From Verrucomicrobiaceae bacterium (lineage in GTDB: Bacteria > Verrucomicrobiota > Verrucomicrobiia > Verrucomicrobiales > Verrucomicrobiaceae), in assembly GCA_019694165.1 (NCBI GenBank), contig JAIBCL010000001.1, positions 434,001 to 498,000 of the forward strand: DNA of 64,000 nucleotides, read 5' to 3'. Below the pieces are notes generated by a model. That model was not told where the DNA came from, searched no databases, and saw only the letters and a program-made list of their open reading frames with translations. Below, piece by piece: positions 22,257 through 64,000 of the stretch. Made by a program: the position numbers and the translations under genes. Position 1 is the first letter of the stretch; every line of letters starts with the position of its first letter.

Positions 22257-22401
22257 TCCCTGCCAGGCTGTTGGCGCGAGATCAGATCTCGCGCATCATT
22301 TCACCCCACCGGTTCTCCGGGTTTTCAAACACGGCCAGCCGCGAGAAGCGCGGCCGCCACAGGTTTGCCAGCCATCCGTGCGGAACGGCTGCGCGCGCAG
22401 C

Positions 22402-22781
22402 AGGGCTTGCGCCTGAACCGAAAAGCGAAAGCCCCAAATCCATGATTTGCCCCGCAAGATTCAAGACTCCACAGATGGGTTCAGAAGAAGTCCAATCCGT
22501 GGTCGCCCTGAATCCGTGGGAATTCACTCAGAACCAATTCATGCGCAGGCCCTGAGCGGGCAGACCGTCTGTGGTGAAGAGACTGGCCCGCAGGGCTGGC
22601 GCATGAACCGAAAAGCGAAGGCCCAAAATCCATGATTTGCCCCGCAAGACTCAGGACCCCACAAATGGGTTCAGAAGAAGTCCAATCCGTGGTCGTCCTG
22701 AATCCGTGGGAATTCACTCAGAAACAATTCATGCGCAGGACCTGCGCCGACAGGTCGTCTGTGTTGAAGAGACTGGCCCGC
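22402..22781. repeat. 190-bp imperfect tandem duplication
   Basis: Two copies with a period of exactly 190 bp (for example AACCGAAAAGCGAA at 22416 and 22606; GGTCG followed by CCTGAATCCGTGGG at 22501 and 22691). The repeat carries on its minus strand a decayed 3' end of a sialate-O-acetylesterase-like gene (see the entry at 22718). It is not a CRISPR array or an insertion sequence. Confidence 0.85.
22528..22596 (-). pseudogene. Isolated tail fragment of a sialate O-acetylesterase-like gene
   Basis: Minus-strand translation reads RASLFTTDGLPAQGLRMNWF followed by a stop. This resembles the intact C-terminus ANLFNKDGLPAQPFRTDSW encoded at 28060. No upstream reading frame continues it. A further short echo (AQPFRTDGW) is encoded around 22365-22400. 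These are remnants, not genes. Confidence 0.6.
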
Positions 22782-23162
22782 TGAAAGACATTGCTCCACG
22801 CCATCGAGCGCGATGCGCTGGCCGGTGAGGGCGCATCGGATTGTTCTCGACGACGAGGCCGTTCGTGAAGCCAAACTGCATCCGCGCTGCCTTGCCTGCG
22901 CCGCCGTGCGGAACGTTGCTCCCGAGCAAACCATTCCGGATTACCCTTGCCTTCGATGTGACCTTCCCTGCTACACAAGAAGGTGCCGTGGTTCGGCTCC
23001 GGCGTATTGCCCTTCCCATACGAGGTGAGCGTCTTCCCTCCGCCCAGATGCAGATCGCGGATGGTGATGGTCGCTCTCCGCCGCAAACAGCGACGAGGCG
23101 GGGAGCAGAGACACGAGAAGGAGAAGGTCGCGCAGCAAGACAGGGCTGTGAGTGACTGGTGA
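22718..23162 (-). pseudogene. Decayed secreted protein with a sialate-O-acetylesterase-like tail
   Basis: Read on the minus strand from about 23150, one frame gives a plausible signal peptide (LLRDLLLLVSLLPASSLFAAES). A neighbouring frame then gives TIRDLHLGGGKTLTSYGKGN. The region ends with WSNVFQRASLFNTDDLSAQV and a stop at 22718, similar to WSNAFQWANLFNKDGLPAQ at the end of the intact esterase at 28060-29631. The need to switch frames marks it as broken. Together with the 190-bp duplication it fills the 906 bp between clpC and the island gene at 23163; I see no intact gene there. Confidence 0.5.
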
Positions 23163-26100
23163 TCACCAGTGCTGGGCGGCGGATTCGGCGTCGTGGAGTT
23201 CGGGGAGGCGGCGGCCGTAGTGGTGCTGGCGGATGAGGGTGGCGGCGCGGGTGAGTTCGGCGCGGTCGCGGAAGAGGCGGGCGCGGTGCAGATGGACGTC
23301 GGCGAGGAAGAGCGGCATTGGGCCGCGCTCGGCGATGCGCTGCGCCTCGTCCAGCGCCTGCCGCGCGGCTGCGGCATCGCCGTGGAGGTGATGGTGCAGC
23401 GCGGCGGTGAGGAGGGCGAGGGGAAGCATGTCAGCCGTGCCTGCTTGGCGGAGGCCGTCGAGGGAGGCGGGCAGGTGGGGGTTGGGCGTGGCGGCGGGTG
23501 GCGGGGAGTGGAGCAGTGCGCGGTAGAGGGTGAGTCGGGCGAGGGTGAGGTGATCGAGGGCGATGTCGAGGAGTGGTCCTTGATATTGTGTCATCCACCC
23601 GAGTGTCTGCGTGGCCCGGCGCTCGGCTTCGGCGAGGGCGGTGCTGGGGAGTGTTGTCTCGGGCTTCAGCCCGTCTTCGCTCGGAAGGGTGGACGACTCT
23701 GCAGCGGTGGGTGGGGCGGGGTTTGGCGGGCTAAAGCCCGAGATTACCCCTGCCCATGCAGCGCGCTCGGCGGAGGCGAGGATCAGATCGCAGTAGCAAA
23801 AGCCTCGCAGCGAGTAGAGCAGATCGAACTGGGGCTGAACCATGCGCTGCATGTCCTCGGCCTGCTCGAAGAGCTGGCGGGCCTCATCGCTCTCGCCGCG
23901 CTGGTGGAGGGCATTGGCGGCGGTGGTGCGATCCGCCATTCGACGAAATGAATTGCTGCCGCGATCCGCGAACTCAATGGCCCGACGGGCGTCAGCTTCC
24001 GCCTCTCCCAACCGACCCAACGTCACTTCCAACTCGCTTAGGTTAGTGGCACTCTGCGCCGCGTTCCTCCAATCCTGTTGCTTGATTAGCAATTCCAGTC
24101 CCGCCCGCATCGGCTCCAGCGCTTCGGTGAGGCGACCGAGAGCGCGAAGGCTGAACGCGACTTCATTGAGCAGCCATGCCTGATCGCCTTCACTGAGATT
24201 CGGCGACAGCCGACTCCACGGCACCTCGAAGAAGGCCGCCACCGCGCCCAGGTCCGCGCCGATGGCTCCGAGTTTCTTCGTGCTGTAGTTGCCATCGTCT
24301 CCGGTGCCGCGCAGGATGCGATCGACATAGATTTGATACAACGCCTCATGCTGCCGCTCCGCGAGGCAGCCGTGGACGACGGCTTGATAGAGAGGCTGGA
24401 GACCTTCCAGCGTGTCGGGCCGGTGCGGGGTGTGCTGGCAGAGGTGATCGAAGAGGCGGGAGTGCGCGGCCTGGAAGGCTTGGGGCTGCTGCACGCGGAG
24501 CTGCTGGCCGAAATACTCGCGGACCAACGGATGGGCGTCGATGGATTCCTGATTTTGGATTCCTGATTCATGATTCAATCGCGTGATGAGGCCGGCGGTG
24601 GCGAGTCGGTTGAGGGCGATGGTCCAGTCGCGGTCGGAGACATCGGCGAGGGGTTCGGTGAGGTGCGCGATGACCGGAGGCTGGCGCAGGGCGGTGAGGC
24701 AGTCGGCGGTGGCGGGGCGATTGAAGAGGCCGAGCAGGCGCAGGATGGCGAGCTGGAGCCGGCCTTCGCTGCGCTCGCGCGGGGTGCGCCGGGTGGTCTC
24801 ATCCGAAAGCCAGTGTTCATAGGCAGCGACCACGCCAAAAGCGTTGCCGTAGGGTGAATCGGGATCGTCGCTGGTGACCCACTCGGGATCGGCGTCGGCG
24901 AAGCGGAAGGTGTCGCGCTGCCGGATGTCGCCGATGCCATCGCTGCCGATGAGGGCGAGGTATTTGCCCATGAGTGTGAGGGTGAGCGCGTGGCCCTGCA
25001 CCTCGGTGGTAGCGACGCGCAGCTCGGCATCATCGGCGGCAATGCTGGCCTGGCCCGCGCGCTTGACGCCGTGGTGATGCAGCAGGGCAGCCCCGGCCTC
25101 GGGGCTGAGTTGATCCAGTGCGCAGGTGAGGGCGGTCTTGCGTCCGTCGAGGTCGGTGACGTTCTCGCGCGTGGTGACGAGGCACAGGCCGGCATTCTGC
25201 GCGGCGAGTCCGCTGAGCAACGCGGTGATGGCGGGGTCGGTGAGCTGGCCTGCCATCGGGCCGGGTGGATACTGGAGCGGCTCCAGGCCATCCAACACGA
25301 GAAGTGTTTTGTCTTTTCCCACGAGTCGCGCGAGCCGCTCGCCGCGATCCCACGGGGAGCCGTGAATGGGATCGGGATCGCCGAAGAAGCTGAGTGCCCG
25401 GGCGATGAAAGTGTCTGCAGAGGCGGTGGTCTCGCCCGCGCGCCGGGTGCCCTGACTGTAGAAGGACCAGTAGAAGACGCGCTGCGCTCCGCGCCAGTCC
25501 TTGAACTCCATTTCGGCCATCCAGGCGTTAACGAGGGCGGTCTTCCCCACGCCGCCCCAGGCGCGCACAATGACGATGTGCTGCTGCGCGTCTTGCCACG
25601 CGGTGTCCAGCCGGGCCAGCCAGGGCTCGCGCCCGATCAGCTCGCGCGGGGTGTGCGGCAGACGCGGGATGCAGGTGACGACGGCGGACTCGCCACGCGG
25701 CGGGAGGATGTCATGCAAATCTGCGAGCACGAAGCTGCTGAGCCGCTCCTCGGTGAGGAAGACATCGCGATCAAAACCGAGCGCGCGGATGCGATCGAAG
25801 TGCGCGGCCTGGAGTCGCTTCTGCGCGGCATCGGGCACGAAGCCGGGCTGGCGCGGTGCGCTGGCATCGGGCCGGTAGATGTGCAGGCGGACGTGATGAT
25901 AGATGGCGAGGTAAGCCTCCCACTGCGTGTAGGAGCAGCCGCCGAGCAACTCGCGCGTGAGTCCGGTGTGCGGCGCGAGCGTGGTGAGGAAGTCAGTGTG
26001 CCTCTCCAACAACGCATCCACCGCTGCCGCCGGTGGCACATGCCCGAGCCCGTCGCCAACGAGGTGAATCACGGCATCGCAGCCACGGATGTAGTTGTCG

Positions 26101-27206
26101 AGCTTCTCCAGGGTAGTGGCACCGAGATAGCCGAACTTCTCCTGCGTGGTGACTTCCACTCGACTGCGCTCGAGATCGCGCGCGAGGAGTTCGCGACAGG
26201 AGCGCAATTCATCCGACACCATAGAGAGGAACAGTCGGCGAACTGATTTTCCTGACCGCACCCGTTTTTGACGCTCGACCACCTCAGTAATCTCTCTCTG
26301 GCGATCTTTGACCCGTCCCCACGCGTTTTCGATAAGCAGCGCTGAAAGAACTGAAAATGCCTCGGCTGGGGATTCGGATTCCGTGAGGCTATCCAGGATC
26401 ACCGGCAACTTCTCGCCGAATGTGTAAAAGGAGACATGCGGCACCCTCAGGTTTTCAAGAATTCTGCGAGGATGAACGTCTGCGGGTGCCCAGCTTCGCA
26501 TGAACGGTTCAATAATGTTTTCGATCTTAGCTAGCCACACATCCCCCTCTTCTTTTTCCTCTCGCCCGGCCCATCTTGATAACAAAGGTATAATGATGGG
26601 TTCTAAACGTGGAAATCCAAACTGCTGTCGTGCCAAACTTGCCCTTTCTGCAATGTGTGTGACACCGAGAAGACTCTGCTCGTTTGCAGTGAACACAAGC
26701 ACAAGAATGTCCGGCAAATGGATGGTGCATACGCTTCCTGCATCTGTAACCCCGGTTCTACTGTCGATCAGAACAAAGTCATATGCATCGATCCATGATG
26801 ATCGAAGGCTTTCAAGATACTCTCCTCCACCCAGATCATAATACTCCGACCAACTGAAATCGATGAGACGCTGCTGATATCCCTCTTCATCAATTCCACT
26901 TGGCAGCATGTCGAAAAAGCCATGCGCTCCGAGATCGACCCGAAATGTGTATTCCCGCCACTCTGGGGCAGATGTTGCCTTGTCTCGGGCAACACAGCCG
27001 CCCAGCAAGCCAAAGATTCCGCCTTTATGAATGGGCGGCGTGATCGGATAGGTTGAAAAATACTGCTCGAGTCCGGGTGCTTCCAGATCCCAATCAACGA
27101 CAAGAACGCGAAATCCACAGGCTGTGAGAAGCACAGCTACATTGGACAATGCCATCGTCCGTCCGACGCCGCCTTTGTAAGAGTAGAAGGTGATGATTTT
27201 ACCCAT
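23163..27206 (-). CDS. KGGVGR-motif ATPase, DUF4062, STAND-type NTPase and TPR fusion protein
   Basis: A 1347-aa multidomain protein. Residues 1-320: ParA/MinD-like ATPase, with MGKIITFYSYKGGVGRTMAL carrying the deviant KGGVGR Walker A, then VLVVDWDLEAPGLEQYF. Residues about 322-430: DUF4062 (VRRLFLSMVSDELRSCRELL). Residues about 540-800: NTPase with P-loop RAWGGVGKTAL near 549 and Walker B LLVLDGLEPLQ near 633, of the STAND/NACHT-like class. Residues about 985-1215 and beyond: TPR-like helices. The start at 27206 leaves 13 bp after the TIR stop; a longer start at 27254 would overlap it. The ATPase part is visibly lower in GC than the rest, suggesting fusion of an acquired segment to a resident DUF4062 gene. 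STAND-TPR proteins act as switch-like sensors in conflict systems; pairing with a TIR effector is inferred from adjacency. Confidence 0.8.
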   Translation of the reverse strand: MGKIITFYSYKGGVGRTMALSNVAVLLTACGFRVLVVDWDLEAPGLEQYFSTYPITPPIHKGGIFGLLGGCVARDKATSAPEWREYTFRVDLGAHGFFDMLPSGIDEEGYQQRLIDFSWSEYYDLGGGEYLESLRSSWIDAYDFVLIDSRTGVTDAGSVCTIHLPDILVLVFTANEQSLLGVTHIAERASLARQQFGFPRLEPIIIPLLSRWAGREEKEEGDVWLAKIENIIEPFMRSWAPADVHPRRILENLRVPHVSFYTFGEKLPVILDSLTESESPAEAFSVLSALLIENAWGRVKDRQREITEVVERQKRVRSGKSVRRLFLSMVSDELRSCRELLARDLERSRVEVTTQEKFGYLGATTLEKLDNYIRGCDAVIHLVGDGLGHVPPAAAVDALLERHTDFLTTLAPHTGLTRELLGGCSYTQWEAYLAIYHHVRLHIYRPDASAPRQPGFVPDAAQKRLQAAHFDRIRALGFDRDVFLTEERLSSFVLADLHDILPPRGESAVVTCIPRLPHTPRELIGREPWLARLDTAWQDAQQHIVIVRAWGGVGKTALVNAWMAEMEFKDWRGAQRVFYWSFYSQGTRRAGETTASADTFIARALSFFGDPDPIHGSPWDRGERLARLVGKDKTLLVLDGLEPLQYPPGPMAGQLTDPAITALLSGLAAQNAGLCLVTTRENVTDLDGRKTALTCALDQLSPEAGAALLHHHGVKRAGQASIAADDAELRVATTEVQGHALTLTLMGKYLALIGSDGIGDIRQRDTFRFADADPEWVTSDDPDSPYGNAFGVVAAYEHWLSDETTRRTPRERSEGRLQLAILRLLGLFNRPATADCLTALRQPPVIAHLTEPLADVSDRDWTIALNRLATAGLITRLNHESGIQNQESIDAHPLVREYFGQQLRVQQPQAFQAAHSRLFDHLCQHTPHRPDTLEGLQPLYQAVVHGCLAERQHEALYQIYVDRILRGTGDDGNYSTKKLGAIGADLGAVAAFFEVPWSRLSPNLSEGDQAWLLNEVAFSLRALGRLTEALEPMRAGLELLIKQQDWRNAAQSATNLSELEVTLGRLGEAEADARRAIEFADRGSNSFRRMADRTTAANALHQRGESDEARQLFEQAEDMQRMVQPQFDLLYSLRGFCYCDLILASAERAAWAGVISGFSPPNPAPPTAAESSTLPSEDGLKPETTLPSTALAEAERRATQTLGWMTQYQGPLLDIALDHLTLARLTLYRALLHSPPPAATPNPHLPASLDGLRQAGTADMLPLALLTAALHHHLHGDAAAARQALDEAQRIAERGPMPLFLADVHLHRARLFRDRAELTRAATLIRQHHYGRRLPELHDAESAAQHW
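23656..23747. repeat. REP-like inverted palindrome pair inside the coding sequence
   Basis: Two small palindromes, GTCTCGGGCTTCAGCCCGTC (23656-23675) and GCGGGCTAAAGCCCGAGA (23726-23743), are inverted copies of each other. They lie in frame inside the TPR region, where they encode a proline/serine-rich insert (NPAPPTAAESSTLPSEDGLK). A related motif, GGGGCTTCAGCCCG, is intergenic at about 40062-40075. Confidence 0.6.
26134..26246 (-). repeat. Copy 1 of a 113-bp direct duplication (DUF4062 start, in the fusion gene)
   Basis: It encodes the first 35 or so residues of the DUF4062 domain. It matches 27893-28005 in the same orientation with an offset of 1759 bp, 11 mismatches by hand alignment (about 90 percent). 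The junction falls between the KGGVGR ATPase segment and the DUF4062 segment. Confidence 0.85.
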
Positions 27207-27219
27207 TGGTGAATTTGTG

Positions 27220-27834
27220 CTAGAAGAGCCGAGGGTTGCGAGGCGGTCCGCCACCTTCGTTGTGTTCTTCGAATAGTTTGATGAAGCAATCGCAGGTCAA
27301 CTCCTCCCATTCCTTTTCAAAAGGCGGCGCGCAGGAGATCGCCTTCGCCACTCCCTTTGCGATTGCCTCAATCCTTTGATCGAGAATCTGAGCTTCTTTC
27401 CCTTCCGGGCAGAGGCATTTATATGTTAACCCTTTTACACTCACCGGATGGATCCCACTCAGGAATCGAGGCGAATCGTCACAATCATGGGCAATCACGG
27501 GAACGATGAGCCCTCCCGTCCGTGTTGTTCGCAACCCATACTTTTCTTCTCGTGCCCTCATCATTGAGAACTCGAGCTGACACCATGGGCGCTTTGGATA
27601 AGCCGAAGTGCAAATAGCCAGCAAGGTCCTGGACCTCGCAAGATTCTCGGCCAGCTCCCGAGGCCACCCATCTCCAGGATAGATCGCGTGTTTGGCCAGA
27701 TAGTAAGTAGACTCACGTTCAAGCTCAGTAGCAAGCCAATGGTTGAATCGCTTCAGGAAGTTGACCTCGACCCATTCAACCCAATCGCCCAAATGTGCGA
27801 GGCTGATAAAGACATCGTGTTCGTAGTCAGACAT
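27220..27834 (-). CDS. TIR-domain protein
   Basis: A 204-aa single-domain TIR-like protein (FxsC-like subgroup by eye). It opens MSDYEHDVFISLAHLGDW, then NLARSRTLLAICTSAYPKRPWCQLEFSMM spread over residues 64-91. The W84-C85-x-x-E88 motif places Glu88 at the position of the catalytic glutamate of NAD-cleaving TIR enzymes. No membrane segment is seen. It precedes the KGGVGR fusion gene by 13 bp and lies 15 bp after the stop of a DUF4062 stub, so all three share a transcript. GC content is clearly below the surrounding genes, which fits transfer. NADase activity is inferred. Confidence 0.85.
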   Translation of the reverse strand: MSDYEHDVFISLAHLGDWVEWVEVNFLKRFNHWLATELERESTYYLAKHAIYPGDGWPRELAENLARSRTLLAICTSAYPKRPWCQLEFSMMRAREEKYGLRTTRTGGLIVPVIAHDCDDSPRFLSGIHPVSVKGLTYKCLCPEGKEAQILDQRIEAIAKGVAKAISCAPPFEKEWEELTCDCFIKLFEEHNEGGGPPRNPRLF

Positions 27835-27849
27835 GGTTCAAAAGTAGGT

Positions 27850-28008
27850 TCAAGGCGGGCCAGAATAGACGCAACCAGCTTCTAACAAATCAAACTTCTC
27901 CTGCGTGGTGACCTCGACACGACTGCGCTCGAGATCGCGTGCGAGGAGTTCGCGACAGGAGCGGAACTCGTCCGACACCATGGAGAGGAACAGGCGACGA
28001 TCTGACAT
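27850..28008 (-). pseudogene. Truncated 5' stub of a DUF4062 gene
   Basis: A 52-aa frame starting ATG at 28008 (MSDRRLFLSMVSDEFRSCRE). It matches the DUF4062 start of the big fusion gene for about 38 residues, then ends in unrelated sequence and a stop. It looks like the original 5' end, with start codon, of a DUF4062-NTPase gene cut off from its body by the TIR/KGGVGR segment. It could still be translated as a short peptide and could drive the downstream genes. Confidence 0.7.
27893..28005 (-). repeat. Copy 2 of the 113-bp direct duplication (DUF4062 stub)
   Basis: This is the partner of 26134-26246. The two copies bracket the low-GC TIR/KGGVGR segment exactly. Differences are mostly at third codon positions, so the copies diverged under coding constraint rather than arising very recently. 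Confidence 0.85.
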
Positions 28009-28059: not shown

Positions 28060-29631
28060 TCACCACGAGTCCGTGCGGAACGGCTGCGCGGGCAGGCCGT
28101 CTTTGTTGAAGAGGTTGGCCCACTGGAAGGCGTTGCTCCATCCGTAGCGCACGGCAGCGGGCTGGGGCACGTCTTTGCTGGAGACGATCACCTTGTCGCC
28201 GCTGATCTCGGCGTCGGCCCACACGAACTTCTTGTCCGCACCGGCGATGGAGAAGCCTTGCAGCTTGTCGCCGTTCGCGAAGGCGAGTCCCTTGCCGATG
28301 TGTTTGAAGCTGAGTGTCACCTTGCCGCCGTCGATGCTGTGGCTGGCGAGCTGCGGGCCGAGGTATTCATTGCCCTTCGCATACGCGACAGCCTGTGCGA
28401 CCTGCACGGCACGCGCGCCGTAGCTGGACTTGTTCGGCGGATGGATGCCCTGGCCGAGATCGCTGCTGATGACCATGTGCGTGTTCGGATACTTCATGAT
28501 CTCCTCGAAAGCGACGTGCGAGTATTCGCGGTCCGGCGTGTTCGGAATCGTCTTCGGCAAGGGCTGGAACTTCTCCGCGCCGCGATGGATCGGAGTCGCA
28601 TACTCAAAGGCGCAACCGCCGCCGCTGGGCTTCTCCACATAGAGCCACGGGAAGTCGCCCTGGCCCCAGGCCTTGCGCCAGCCGCCGATGAGCGCGCCCA
28701 TGAGCGTGACTTGATCAACGCCGACGATGTTTGTGCGACTCTCGCCTTGATCCCACAGCACGCCTTTGATCGCATAGCCGACATACGGACGAATGTAGGC
28801 TTCAAACAACTGCCCGACCTTGCCGCCGTTCGTCTCGCCAGGCAGGCCCGGCTTGGCTGGCGCACGAGGCCCGCGCGGCGCTGGCTTGCCTGCCTTCTTC
28901 GCGGCTTCGGCTTCGACCTTCCACTTGGCGAGGTCCTGGTCATACTTCGCTTTGTCTTGCTCGAACTTCGCAAGCAGCGCCGCATGATCATACGTCGGCG
29001 CGAACTTCTTCACCGCCTCGGCGCACGCGGCATCGCTGCGATACATCTCCTCGCTGAGCCAGAAACCCGAAGGCGTGCCACCGACGGCACCGACCATCAG
29101 TCCGACCGGAACATCGATCTCCTTCTGCAATGCGAAGCCAAACGAGAACAGGAGCGCGCTCATCTTTTGATTCGCTTCCGGCGTCGAGGTCTCCCACACC
29201 GCGTTCGCGTCCTTCCGCATCAGACGCAGCAGCGGATACGATTGATCCGCAGCGGCCTTCAAGACGGGATCGTTCGCCACATAAGAAGCGACCGGCATGT
29301 CCATGTTTGACTGGCCGGAGCCGATCCACACATCGCCCACGAGCACGTCGTCGATGGTCTTGTCATTCACCGTCAGCGCTTGAGGCGACGCATTGGTCTT
29401 CAGCGCATCGAGCTGCACACGCCACGCACCTTTGTCATCGGCCTTCGCGGTTTGACTCTGACCGGCAAACTTCACCGTCACGCTCTCGCCCGGTGCCGCC
29501 GTGCCCCAGACGGGCACCTTCATGTCGCGCTGCAAAACCATGTGCGGTGTGAAGACTTTGGACAGCTTCACCTCCGCGTGTGCAGCGGCGGTGAGCGAGA
29601 GGAGGACGGCGAGGAGACGTGTGGCGTTCAT
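28060..29631 (-). CDS. Sialate O-acetylesterase-like SGNH hydrolase
   Basis: A 523-aa secreted enzyme with signal peptide MNATRLLAVLLSLTAAAHA. The N-terminal beta-sandwich (HMVLQRDMKVPVWGTAAPGE) is typical of bacterial sialate O-acetylesterases. The SGNH domain has block I IGSGQSNM with nucleophile Ser108, WDQGES, and a C-terminal SDLGQGIHPPNK providing the Asp/His pair near residues 389-395. A Lys/Ala/Pro-rich insertion (about 230-270) interrupts the domain. It removes O-acetyl groups from sugars, likely on host or algal glycans. It is divergent to the oxidoreductase at 29723 with a 91-bp shared spacer. Degenerate copies of its 3' end lie beyond the TIR island at 22.4-22.8 kb. Confidence 0.9.
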   Translation of the reverse strand: MNATRLLAVLLSLTAAAHAEVKLSKVFTPHMVLQRDMKVPVWGTAAPGESVTVKFAGQSQTAKADDKGAWRVQLDALKTNASPQALTVNDKTIDDVLVGDVWIGSGQSNMDMPVASYVANDPVLKAAADQSYPLLRLMRKDANAVWETSTPEANQKMSALLFSFGFALQKEIDVPVGLMVGAVGGTPSGFWLSEEMYRSDAACAEAVKKFAPTYDHAALLAKFEQDKAKYDQDLAKWKVEAEAAKKAGKPAPRGPRAPAKPGLPGETNGGKVGQLFEAYIRPYVGYAIKGVLWDQGESRTNIVGVDQVTLMGALIGGWRKAWGQGDFPWLYVEKPSGGGCAFEYATPIHRGAEKFQPLPKTIPNTPDREYSHVAFEEIMKYPNTHMVISSDLGQGIHPPNKSSYGARAVQVAQAVAYAKGNEYLGPQLASHSIDGGKVTLSFKHIGKGLAFANGDKLQGFSIAGADKKFVWADAEISGDKVIVSSKDVPQPAAVRYGWSNAFQWANLFNKDGLPAQPFRTDSW

Positions 29632-62646: not shown

Positions 62647-62704
62647 GTCATTCGCCAATGATTGCAGCCTTGTGCTTAACCAATCACGAGGCATCGTCGC
62701 GACG

Positions 62705-64000
62705 ATGACGAACCTCTCAAAGAACGACACGCCAACAAAGGATGTCTTCATCAGTTACAACCGGGCAGACGAAGCTTGGGCGAAGAAGTTGGCTGAGCGG
62801 CTTGAGTCCATCCACCTGGAAAGCACACCCACTGGCCGATCACTGAGCGTGTTCTTCGCTCCGTGGGACATCGAATATGGATCGAACTTTGTGAATACTC
62901 TGAACGACGGACTTAGAGCCGCGAGATATTTTGTTCCAATCATGACGCCTGAATTCTTCGGATCGGACTGGACTAATCTTGAATGGACGGATCAAGTGGC
63001 ACTCGATCCCCGCAATGCGAGCGGGCGGATTCTCCCTATTTTTCTCCGAGCTGTTTCGCTGGATGGAAAGCGGCGCATTACGATTCCACCGCCATTTAAT
63101 GTCCTCAACCGCTTCGATTTTCGAGACACTGGCTGTTTCGACACACAGTTCGACGAATTAGTGCGCGTCATCCAAGGGTTGCCGAAGAAGCGTGGAAGCA
63201 CTCATCCTTCACGACAAATTGTATCGTTCTCGAAATCAATATCGGGTGCTTCGCATCTTCACGCAAACCCTGATCAGACTGACGAACTGCTTCTGATGAA
63301 CTTGGTTGAGATTATCAGTGGGCCAGATGAAATGTGGATCGCTCCCACCAAGGCTAGGAAGCGAAATGAGGTGTGGTCTTCGGTGAAGACCAACGAGGCA
63401 TTCGTCCTCAGAAGCGATTCGATTATGGCCTTCTGCAATATGGCGGATGCTCAGTGCTCGTTGTATCCAATTGTTGAACCAGGAGGAAAAGTTCGAAGCA
63501 TGTCGCGGGTAGATGTCATCTCCGATGCTGACGGAAGAAGGACATACGTGGAGATGCTTAACGAGTGTCTGCGCGCTCACTGTAGGGAACGGAAGATTGG
63601 TATAGACTCAAAAGGACGCTACTACTTTTGGCCGAATCGCAATGAAGCCGAAGAACTTTGTGTTCGTGAGCACTCGTTTAGGTCTGAGAAACCCAGGGAG
63701 GTTGCGGCACCCAAAACTCGCCCCGACACTGAAGAACAATTCTGGGTCCACTATGCCGCGAGAATGCGATTTGAGTTCCTCGGCGATCGTCTTTTTCTTC
63801 GCATTGATCCTTCATACATCTTCACGTCGGACGGGCGGAATCCGCTCGACTCAAAGGCTACAGGGAGGCTCTCCATTCAGTGGACGGGTAAACAGCAGAA
63901 TCCTGATCTACTTCGATTGATGTTGTTTTGGATTCGTGTCTTGGCAGACGGCAAGCCAGAAGTCCGCATTGCTGCCGGAGGATCGTTTATCAAAGCGAAA
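62705..64000 (+). CDS. TIR-domain protein with an unassigned C-terminal half, 3' end outside window
   Basis: The open frame from the ATG at 62705 runs to the window edge (432 codons so far). Residues 10-150 are a TIR domain: PTKDVFISYNRADEAWAKKL, then FAPWDIEYGSNF, and FFGSDWTNLEWTDQVAL with Glu93 at the catalytic position. After a linker, residues about 200-430 form a second region without a family I recognise. It shows WIAPTKARKRNEVW, and MRFEFLGDRLFLRIDPSYIF spread over 363-382, then FTSDGRNPLD. Codon use is lower in GC than the neighbours, suggesting transfer. It may be the first gene of a defence locus continuing outside the window. Confidence 0.82.
   Translation, partial: MTNLSKNDTPTKDVFISYNRADEAWAKKLAERLESIHLESTPTGRSLSVFFAPWDIEYGSNFVNTLNDGLRAARYFVPIMTPEFFGSDWTNLEWTDQVALDPRNASGRILPIFLRAVSLDGKRRITIPPPFNVLNRFDFRDTGCFDTQFDELVRVIQGLPKKRGSTHPSRQIVSFSKSISGASHLHANPDQTDELLLMNLVEIISGPDEMWIAPTKARKRNEVWSSVKTNEAFVLRSDSIMAFCNMADAQCSLYPIVEPGGKVRSMSRVDVISDADGRRTYVEMLNECLRAHCRERKIGIDSKGRYYFWPNRNEAEELCVREHSFRSEKPREVAAPKTRPDTEEQFWVHYAARMRFEFLGDRLFLRIDPSYIFTSDGRNPLDSKATGRLSIQWTGKQQNPDLLRLMLFWIRVLADGKPEVRIAAGGSFIKAK

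What the first reader, a model, noticed from the sequence alone, without database searches (positions are those of the whole stretch)
23163..27834. TIR gene coupled to a KGGVGR-ATPase/DUF4062/NTPase/TPR fusion: candidate conflict or defence system
A lone TIR protein with the catalytic-type Glu88 sits 13 bp before a 1347-aa protein combining a KGGVGR ParA-like ATPase, DUF4062, a STAND-like NTPase and TPRs. TIR enzymes deplete NAD and STAND-TPR proteins act as threshold sensors. The KGGVGR ATPase as the first module of the same polypeptide is unusual to me. Adjacency and low GC of the front part support a transferred two-gene system.
Basis: partly seen in the sequence, partly recalled or inferred. 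Interest (0 to 1): 0.75.

Follow-up and report, generated by a model that had tools for sequence, protein, structure and literature searches.

The report
TIR plus four-part NLR-like defence protein
A bacterial gene pair, one TIR enzyme and one giant NLR-like protein with what seems to be a second TIR-like domain, looks like a phage-triggered suicide switch, and a DNA scar suggests that its front half was bolted onto an older resident gene.

Summary
The two genes are real: a 204-aa TIR gene (27834..27220) and, 13 bp on, a 1347-aa protein KGGVGR(ParA-like)-DUF4062-NACHT/STAND-TPR. KGGVGR in front of an NTPase is not a local accident: six more were found (three NACHT by Pfam, one AAA_35, two by eye). 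L100 (Nitrospirota) matches both ends of the window protein and differs in the middle, TIR for DUF4062. Two things change the picture. (1) DUF4062 is reported in a 2026 preprint to be a TIR-like NADase domain (Swarozyc defence), so the locus probably holds two NADase-type domains. (2) A 113-nt direct repeat flanks the low-GC TIR+KGGVGR segment; the upstream copy is the beheaded start of an older GC-rich DUF4062 gene, so the cassette was inserted in frame there. Relatives carry the same STAND-TPR chassis with other heads. Best reading: STAND-triggered NAD depletion, with KGGVGR as nucleotide-binding adaptor for the TIR protein. No function was tested; DUF4062 and NACHT score just under Pfam cut-offs; the KGGVGR P-loop lysine is arginine in all 83 rows, so 'ATPase' is unproven.

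The parts
27220..27834 (-). TIR-domain protein, 204 aa; catalytic-type Glu88 codon at 27571-27573
   Evidence: ORF; TIR_2 2.6e-12; AlphaFold2 model pLDDT 91.3, pTM 0.88; the 50 best PDB fold matches listed are all entries with a TIR domain, TM-scores 0.31-0.50 by query length; Glu88 lines up with the WC..E glutamate of plant TIRs
23163..27206 (-). 1347-aa fusion protein KGGVGR-DUF4062-NACHT/STAND-TPR
26262..27206 (-). KGGVGR (ParA/MinD-like) module, residues 1 to about 315; motif KGGVGR residues 11-16 (27159-27176), DWDLEAPG 38-45, DSRTG 148-152
   Evidence: NF047398 133 bits; motif positions; the 4-row family profile aligns to MinD with the first Lys kept and the P-loop Lys replaced by Arg
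25692..26246 (-). DUF4062 (TIR-like) module, about residues 321-505; candidate catalytic Glu430 (SYTQWEAYLA) at 25917-25919
   Evidence: Pfam sub-cut-off 3.6e-4; YTQWE invariant in 5 rows; Glu position
24492..25574 (-). NACHT/STAND NTPase region, residues 545-905; P-loop GGVGKT at residue 551, LLVLDGLEP at 635
   Evidence: NACHT 1.1e-4 over residues 545-710, sub-cut-off; motif positions; residues 511-1341 match L100 over 840 columns at 36%
23163..24491 (-). TPR-bearing C-terminal region (TPR_12 at residues 1008-1080)
26247..27892 (.). low-GC inserted segment carrying TIR and the KGGVGR module
   Evidence: GC 0.510, below all 1248 sliding windows; bounded by the 113-nt repeat
26134..26246 (-). 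direct repeat copy 1: first codons of DUF4062 inside the fusion
27893..28005 (-). direct repeat copy 2: beheaded start of the older DUF4062 gene
   Evidence: 90% identity to copy 1, E 6e-37 within the window
27850..28008 (-). remnant 52-codon ORF that begins as a DUF4062 gene would and stops 15 bp before the TIR start codon

Best explanation
A two-protein NAD-depleting defence unit. Shown by sequence: a TIR protein; a fusion protein with a KGGVGR ParA-like module, a DUF4062-type domain, a STAND-type NTPase and TPRs; a TIR-type glutamate in each of the two enzyme domains; an inserted cassette. Inferred: the TPR end senses an invader or stress signal, the STAND NTPase oligomerises on ATP, this brings DUF4062 domains together and makes them cut NAD; the KGGVGR module, acting as a nucleotide-gated dimer or adaptor rather than a fast ATPase, docks the separate TIR proteins onto the same assembly so that two NADase sets fire together and the cell stops growing before phage is released. 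Origin: an older DUF4062-STAND-TPR gene received a TIR-KGGVGR cassette by recombination within its first 40 codons.
For: Pair: 80 of 80 closest loci have a TIR ORF directly upstream, 78 of 80 within -13 to +35 bp (start taken ten residues before the motif). Glu88 81 of 83 rows. TIR fold. DUF4062 as NADase and antiphage protein: PMC13174449 (abstract and parts 1-2 of 6 read; passages). L100 matches the window protein at both ends (KGGVGR 39% over 304 columns, STAND-TPR 36% over 840, E 2e-145) with a TIR between them. Head exchange on the chassis in 9 of 12 fetched loci of family or order: DUF4062 (L173, L178, L181), TIR (L177, L179, L182), nuclease-like by eye (L174, L175), other (L176). Layouts alike with a TIR gene upstream: L133 KGGVGR-DUF4062-NACHT-FGE, L195 KGGVGR-NDT-like-NACHT-FGE. 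Scar.
Against: No activity, phage or NAD data. DUF4062 and NACHT in the window are just under Pfam cut-offs. The DUF4062 model failed (pLDDT 49); DUF4062 versus TIR profiles gave no significant match (E 0.43); the window's DUF4062 is not linked to that of L133 by profile or BLASTP. In the cited preprint only one of four human DUF4062-NACHT proteins was an active NADase. Next-door genes read as ClpC and an esterase, not defence genes; PADLOC did match other window ORFs (27 families over 32 ORFs scanned), but the tally does not say which or where. Among 96 genomes searched with KGGVGR (own included) and 16 loci then fetched, no other KGGVGR ORF held DUF4062.
Confidence: 0.57

Rival explanations
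1. Thoeris-like relay: the TIR protein makes a nucleotide signal from NAD, and the KGGVGR module is the receptor that switches on whatever effector is fused behind it (here DUF4062).
For: The pair can be nearly minimal: L055 and L110 have KGGVGR ORFs of only 383 and 399 aa from the domain start. What follows KGGVGR varies: of 81 C-terminal parts scanned, CATASP 32, TIR_2 24, TPR_12 8, NACHT 2. Of 75 TIRs scanned, 75 match FxsC_Nterm and 50 a Thoeris type III model at E<=1e-3; 12 of 44 match one ThsB model.
Against: No product known; KGGVGR keeps MinD-like motifs that suggest ATP or ADP rather than an ADP-ribose derivative. P0002 itself matches no PADLOC model at E<=1e-3, its Thoeris type III match is only E 0.09, and its FxsC match is under cut-off.
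Confidence: 0.15
2. The fusion is a recombination accident: TIR plus KGGVGR still work as a pair or are inert, and the DUF4062-STAND-TPR part is an older system now misexpressed.
For: The junction is a recombination scar. NACHT was matched in only 2 of 81 C-terminal parts, so most pairs exist without it. No sister genome with the same fusion was found.
Against: The frame is intact over 1347 codons and the join is in frame; a KGGVGR-TIR-like-STAND-TPR order with the same body exists in L100, and seven NTPase-fused rows need 6 changes on the tree.
Confidence: 0.17
3. A regulatory or self-recognition switch in a multicellular or surface-attached bacterium, not primarily antiphage.
For: Kaur et al. 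2020 (PMC7159879, passages read) tie such NTP-dependent conflict systems to bacteria with complex development; FxSxx-type relatives are coupled to modified peptides.
Against: Heads are toxic-type enzymes and are exchanged as in defence proteins (part of it by eye).
Confidence: 0.11

Closest known systems
Swarozyc (DUF4062 NADase defence; PMC13174449, 2026 preprint, parts 1-2 of 6 and passages read)
   Same: DUF4062 TIR-like domain with a conserved Glu; likely NAD depletion
   Different: KpSwz has a portal-binding HTH/winged auxiliary domain; here DUF4062 sits between KGGVGR and STAND-TPR and there is a second, separate TIR
FxSxx-COOH-linked TIR-AP-ATPase-TPR proteins with an added 'inactive MinD/ParA-like domain' (Kaur et al. 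2020, PMC7159879, passages) and FxsC TIR-like proteins (NCBIfam)
   Same: ParA-like + TIR-type + STAND + TPR in one system; the TIR matches the FxsC N-terminal model, below cut-off
   Different: DUF4062 stands in the TIR slot, NACHT rather than AP-ATPase is matched, and the FxsC and FxSxx_TPR models are not met; peptide genes were not searched for
L100-type locus (Nitrospirae MAG, JACRHC010000056.1), unnamed
   Same: TIR gene, then KGGVGR - TIR-type domain - STAND - TPR, similar over both ends
   Different: TIR instead of DUF4062 in the middle
Bacterial NACHT/STAND antiphage proteins (bNACHT, Avs; recalled; EruA model matches L133 and L195 far under cut-off)
   Same: effector head - STAND NTPase - repeat sensor
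   Different: KGGVGR as the first module and a separate TIR partner
Human TEP1/NPHP3 architecture (DUF4062 next to NACHT; PMC13174449)
   Same: DUF4062 next to NACHT
   Different: no KGGVGR and no TIR partner reported in the parts read
PADLOC candidates PDC-M28B (KGGVGR part of P0001, 3.2e-20) and PDC-S66 (33 of 44 TIRs)
   Same: candidate-level matches of each half of the pair
   Different: what these candidates contain was not looked up; P0002 itself reaches PDC-S66 only at E 0.019

Membership tests
TIR domain enzymes | TIR fold | tested here: met
   TIR_2 over cut-off; pLDDT 91.3 model, listed fold matches are TIR-bearing entries
TIR domain enzymes | catalytic glutamate in WC..E | tested here: met
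   Glu88, 81 of 83 rows, 2 gaps; alignment to plant TIRs
TIR domain enzymes | NAD cleavage | not testable with these tools
   needs enzyme assay
Swarozyc / DUF4062 | DUF4062 domain | tested here: inconclusive
   Pfam 21.1 bits under the 24.7 cut-off; profile of relatives links it to L043's over-cut-off DUF4062 but not to L133's
Swarozyc / DUF4062 | conserved catalytic Glu | tested here: met
   Glu430 in YTQWE, invariant in 5 rows; aligned by MAFFT to a Glu of L133 at 27% identity. Equivalence to KpSwz E97 not tested
Swarozyc / DUF4062 | portal-binding HTH/winged auxiliary domain of KpSwz | tested here: not met
   what follows is NACHT- and TPR-like
FxSxx-COOH system (FxsC, FxsT) | FxsC model over cut-off | tested here: not met
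   42.8 bits, cut-off 130
FxSxx-COOH system (FxsC, FxsT) | FxSxx_TPR NF040586 over cut-off | tested here: not met
   28.8 bits at this locus, cut-off 300
FxSxx-COOH system (FxsC, FxsT) | FxSxx peptide and radical SAM genes alongside | not tested
   Pfam scan of 32 window ORFs lists 25 of 77 families, none radical SAM; not a full test
STAND/NACHT proteins | NACHT NTPase with Walker A and B | tested here: inconclusive
   NACHT 22.5 bits, cut-off 26.7; GGVGKT and LLVLDG present; the homologous region of L100 scores 28.5, over cut-off
ParA/MinD ATPases | deviant Walker A with P-loop lysine | tested here: not met
   K11 kept, P-loop position is R16 in 83 of 83 rows
Thoeris | ThsB-type TIR plus ThsA/SLOG effector | tested here: not met
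   P0002 matches no PADLOC model at E<=1e-3; no SLOG among the Pfam matches of P0001 at E<=0.1

The most novel reading that the evidence does not exclude
TIR plus KGGVGR is the core of a widespread, unnamed immune relay in which the degenerate ParA-like domain is a receptor or gate for the TIR enzyme, and the part behind it is an exchangeable effector slot; in this genome the relay was plugged, by a recombination event still visible as a 113-nt scar, onto a complete NLR-like NADase, making one protein with two inputs (TIR-derived signal at the front, TPR-sensed trigger at the back).
Probability: 0.15. Interest if true: 0.85.

Novelty: new variant of a known kind. Interest (0 to 1): 0.6.

Why it matters
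It makes three questions testable: what the degenerate KGGVGR ParA-like module does in immunity (kept next to TIR across phyla; the motif name gave no paper in the held library), why two TIR-type domains should sit in one unit, and how NLR-like proteins gain modules. The scar shows in sequence a module being added in frame to an existing STAND gene.

Tried and rejected
Viral origin: the KGGVGR scan of viral contigs gave 6 loci, none with a TIR ORF by my profile; the DUF4062 scan gave none. Plasmid carriage of the window fusion: 20 plasmid records match P0001, none covers 80% of it; one, Sinorhizobium chiapasense, has a TIR stretch (tblastn with P0002) just upstream of a KGGVGR gene annotated as TIR-containing, though the annotated upstream CDS covers only part of that stretch. 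Empty-site comparison: stretches beside clpC in 6 relatives held no match to the esterase, the next two genes or other window ORFs tried, so no empty site could be shown. DUF4062 structure: two rows only, pLDDT 49, not used for a fold search. DUF4062 versus TIR profiles: not significant. PDB sequence searches with the DUF4062 and STAND regions of the window and with two regions of L199: no match; L199 against L133's NACHT part: E 0.012. In the PDB profile search of the TIR family two Gremlin-2 chains also appear at 7.5e-4, evidently chance.

Universality of the pairing was rejected: one search fetched 16 loci (L039-L054) from relatives; 15 were scanned (L046 left out, ORF cut by the contig end); 3 have the TIR gene (L039, L040, L043); of the rest, L053 has KGGLGR and L054 an ordinary KGGVGK ParA-like protein. 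In the phylum sample 2 of 5 KGGVGR genomes have a TIR ORF by the profile (window and G467). For 21 loci without a detected TIR gene, 67 of 77 neighbour ORFs listed plus one more were scanned: no TIR family is matched by two or more of the 68 (single matches beyond the 25 listed of 64 families cannot be excluded).

Simple target-site duplication as the cause of the repeat was rejected: 11 differences in 37 codons, 9 synonymous; with about 75% of random changes non-synonymous, P of 2 or fewer is about 1e-4, so the copies probably diverged in two working genes before being joined.

Literature: KGGVGR (0 papers), DUF4062+TIR (6), FxSxx-COOH (2), conflict-system terms, CATRA terms, NACHT+bNACHT+anti-phage+effector+TIR (0), TIR+ParA+MinD terms, DUF4062+NACHT terms, Thoeris type III (only unrelated cannabinoid papers listed), Swarozyc (0, though the paper is held, perhaps because of an accented letter). 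No paper on the TIR-KGGVGR pair as such was seen in these listings; only PMC13174449, PMC7159879 and PMC8195603 were opened, the last two by passages. Subscription papers are not held.

Full report
WHAT IS THERE. On the minus strand a TIR gene (27834..27220, 204 aa) is followed after 13 bp by a 1347-aa gene (27206..23163). Domain scans give TIR_2 for the first and AAA_31/KGGVGR, DUF4062, NACHT and TPR for the second; DUF4062 and NACHT fall just under Pfam's cut-offs. The TIR model is confident (pLDDT 91.3, pTM 0.88, 44 rows of 82 TIR rows on hand). The 50 best PDB fold matches listed are TIR-bearing entries, E 1e-4 to 4e-3, with modest TM-scores (0.31-0.50 by query length). A profile search puts plant TIR-NLR proteins first (62 sequences at E<=0.01, 60 shown), with Glu88 on the WC..E glutamate.

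THE PAIR IS CONSERVED. An iterative TIR profile started from the window's TIR finds a TIR ORF directly upstream of the KGGVGR ORF in 80 of 80, in L096 split over two ORFs and in L107 partial; the distance lies between -13 and +35 bp in 78 of 80, the others being L077 (+86) and L085 (-241) (starts assumed ten residues before the motif). By phylum: Actinomycetota 46, Bacteroidota 12, Acidobacteriota 6, Pseudomonadota 4, Cyanobacteriota 3, Myxococcota 2, Nitrospirota 2, Chloroflexota, Verrucomicrobiota, Ignavibacteriota and Planctomycetota 1 each, one unassigned (Aminicenantes). Caution: the four seed rows all had the TIR neighbour, so the 80 are the near side of the family. Of 15 loci from relatives scanned, 3 had a TIR gene (one of the 15, L054, is KGGVGK), and the neighbours of 21 loci without a detected TIR gene show no TIR family matched by two or more of 68 proteins. 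The pairing thus marks a clade (82 rows, 97% SH-aLRT) plus outliers L043, L191, L196 and L195. Across 83 rows (window and 82 loci; L039 dropped as the same contig as L058) K11 and R16, seven of eight DWDLEAPG positions and four of five DSRTG positions are invariant; the P-loop lysine of MinD is arginine in all 83. It is rare in the window's own phylum: 5 of 387 genomes at E<=1e-20, and 5 of 294 at E<=1e-30 in the phylum of L133's genome, with at most the 6 or 7 best candidates per genome scored.

KGGVGR IN FRONT OF AN NTPASE IS NOT A LOCAL ACCIDENT. L100 (Nitrospirae MAG) is KGGVGR-TIR-NACHT-TPR with a TIR gene upstream. It matches the window protein over residues 1-294 (39%) and 511-1341 (36%, E 2e-145) and not in between: the same body and front, with TIR in the slot where the window has DUF4062. 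L133 (Planctomycetota) is KGGVGR-DUF4062-NACHT-FGE with a TIR gene; its DUF4062 is over Pfam's cut-off but is not linked to the window's by profile or BLASTP. L195 is KGGVGR-NDT-like (26.1 bits, cut-off 28.8)-NACHT-FGE with an overlapping TIR_2 gene; L191 is KGGTGR-SEFIR-TIR-AAA_35 with a TIR gene. L199 and L200 look, by eye, like KGGVGR-Mrr nuclease-NACHT-pentapeptide-WD40; only the WD40 part is confirmed, for L199, by the 25 Pfam rows shown of 61, two PDB searches gave nothing, and no TIR gene was found there. On a quick tree of 107 KGGVGR rows these seven need 6 changes of label and starred branches force 6, no more clustered than shuffled labels (mean 6.9); the tree warns of long branches, the window's among them. 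The window's nearest rows, L057 and L059, belong to ORFs of 1000 and 755 aa, the latter cut by its contig end; the tail of L057 reads as TPRs.

THE SCAR. A 113-nt direct repeat at 90% identity lies at 26134-26246, where DUF4062 begins inside the fusion, and at 27893-28005, upstream of the TIR gene (E 6e-37). The upstream copy belongs to an ORF that starts with ATG at 28008, reads MSDRRLFLSMVSDEF...TQEKF and ends after 52 codons, 15 bp before the TIR start. Between the copies lie 1646 nt at GC 0.510, below all 1248 windows of that length. Codons 320-1347 have GC3 0.80, codons 1-319 0.50 and the TIR 0.57. The copies differ at 11 sites, 9 synonymous (P about 1e-4 under random change). The simplest reading: a resident DUF4062-STAND-TPR gene was entered, within its first 40 codons, by a molecule carrying TIR-KGGVGR joined to a related DUF4062 start, leaving the old start as a leader and making an in-frame fusion. 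That the donor already had the KGGVGR-DUF4062 join is inference; L100 shows that such a front can sit on this body.

THE CHASSIS SWAPS HEADS. Searching 189 genomes (own included) with DUF4062-STAND-TPR finds a match to some part in 30. In 12 fetched loci (family, one of them order, and own genome) the same NTPase-TPR body carries a DUF4062 head (L173 as two ORFs, L178, L181), a TIR head (L177, L179, L182), a head that looks nuclease-like by eye (L174, L175), another head (L176) or one I could not judge (L180); L183 and L184 share only DUF4062. L180, L181 and L182 are in the window's own genome. Exchange of TIR and DUF4062 fits their being the same kind of enzyme.

DUF4062. A 2026 preprint (PMC13174449; abstract and parts 1-2 of 6 read, further passages) reports DUF4062 as a TIR-like NADase family, an antiphage protein that needs its glutamate E97 and is switched on by a phage portal, and DUF4062 next to NACHT in human TEP1, NWD1, NWD2 and NPHP3, of which only TEP1 was active. 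The window's candidate glutamate is E430 in SYTQWEAYLA. My own structural and profile tests of TIR-likeness failed or were not significant.

HOW IT MAY WORK. Shown: a TIR gene tied to KGGVGR across phyla, and a DUF4062-type domain on a STAND-TPR body, each with a TIR-type glutamate. Inferred: TPR sensing, STAND oligomerisation, DUF4062 activation, docking of the TIR protein through KGGVGR, NAD loss, growth arrest. The P-loop change argues for a slow or non-hydrolysing clamp; Kaur et al. 2020 call a related MinD/ParA-like domain inactive (PMC7159879, passages). The rival relay model stays open because the part behind KGGVGR varies (81 scanned: CATASP 32, TIR_2 24, TPR_12 8, NACHT 2).

SETTING. 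Next-door genes read as ClpC and an esterase (Clp domains among the families); a TIR-APAZ gene with an overlapping 531-aa gene lies about 35 kb away. PADLOC matched 27 families over 32 of the 41 window ORFs picked, places not told. Neighbours of the pair elsewhere (80 of 151 picked ORFs scanned) include HerA/DUF87 14, NACHT 7, TIR_2 5, ThsB_TIR 2, CHAT 2, TPR-S 2, beside ordinary genes. PADLOC knows the two halves only as candidate families.

VERDICT. Real, the pair conserved and the whole modular; a new variant of known TIR/STAND defence-like systems, with an unusually clear record of how its front was added.

Noticed in passing
window 62702-64000 (+), continuing in L211 (G000:C22:496500-508000): TIR-APAZ-like gene (TIR_2 2.8e-20; PADLOC Aga_*-PNTD1-PNTD2 down to 1.9e-29) followed by an overlapping 531-aa gene, perhaps a short Argonaute (not tested): a SPARTA-type NAD-depleting system about 35 kb from the finding.
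   Followed up: partly
window 22375-22400, 22552-22589, 22742-22798 versus 28070-28140: Pieces of the 3' end of the esterase-like gene (28060-29631) recur three times downstream of the fusion gene, so the island is flanked by copies of one gene end.
   Followed up: partly
window 22400-22779: Tandem duplication of 190 nt, 91% identical, between clpC and the fusion gene.
   Followed up: no
L199 and L200 (two genomes of the search): 1763- and 1759-aa proteins that read by eye as KGGVGR - Mrr-type nuclease - NACHT - pentapeptide repeats - WD40, without a TIR gene found.
   Followed up: partly
L043 (G018, same family): DUF4062-NB-ARC-TPR gene (FxSxx_TPR 360 bits, over cut-off) upstream of a TIR gene and a KGGTGR-TIR gene on one strand: the same kinds of parts as the window but unfused.
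   Followed up: partly
L063, L067 and other Actinomycetota loci: The pair is often followed by a gene of about 200 aa and/or one of about 1036 aa with AAA and HerA-like matches; 32 of 81 C-terminal parts match CATASP.
   Followed up: no
plasmid NZ_CP071313.1 of Rhizobium sp. X9: The KGGVGR match is in two pieces with an IS21-type helper gene annotated under it, so the copy looks interrupted.
   Followed up: no
own genome G000: 21 matches at E<=1e-3 to the FxSxx_TPR (TIR-AP-ATPase-TPR) model, two genes over its cut-off, so the genome holds several STAND/TPR-type proteins.
   Followed up: no
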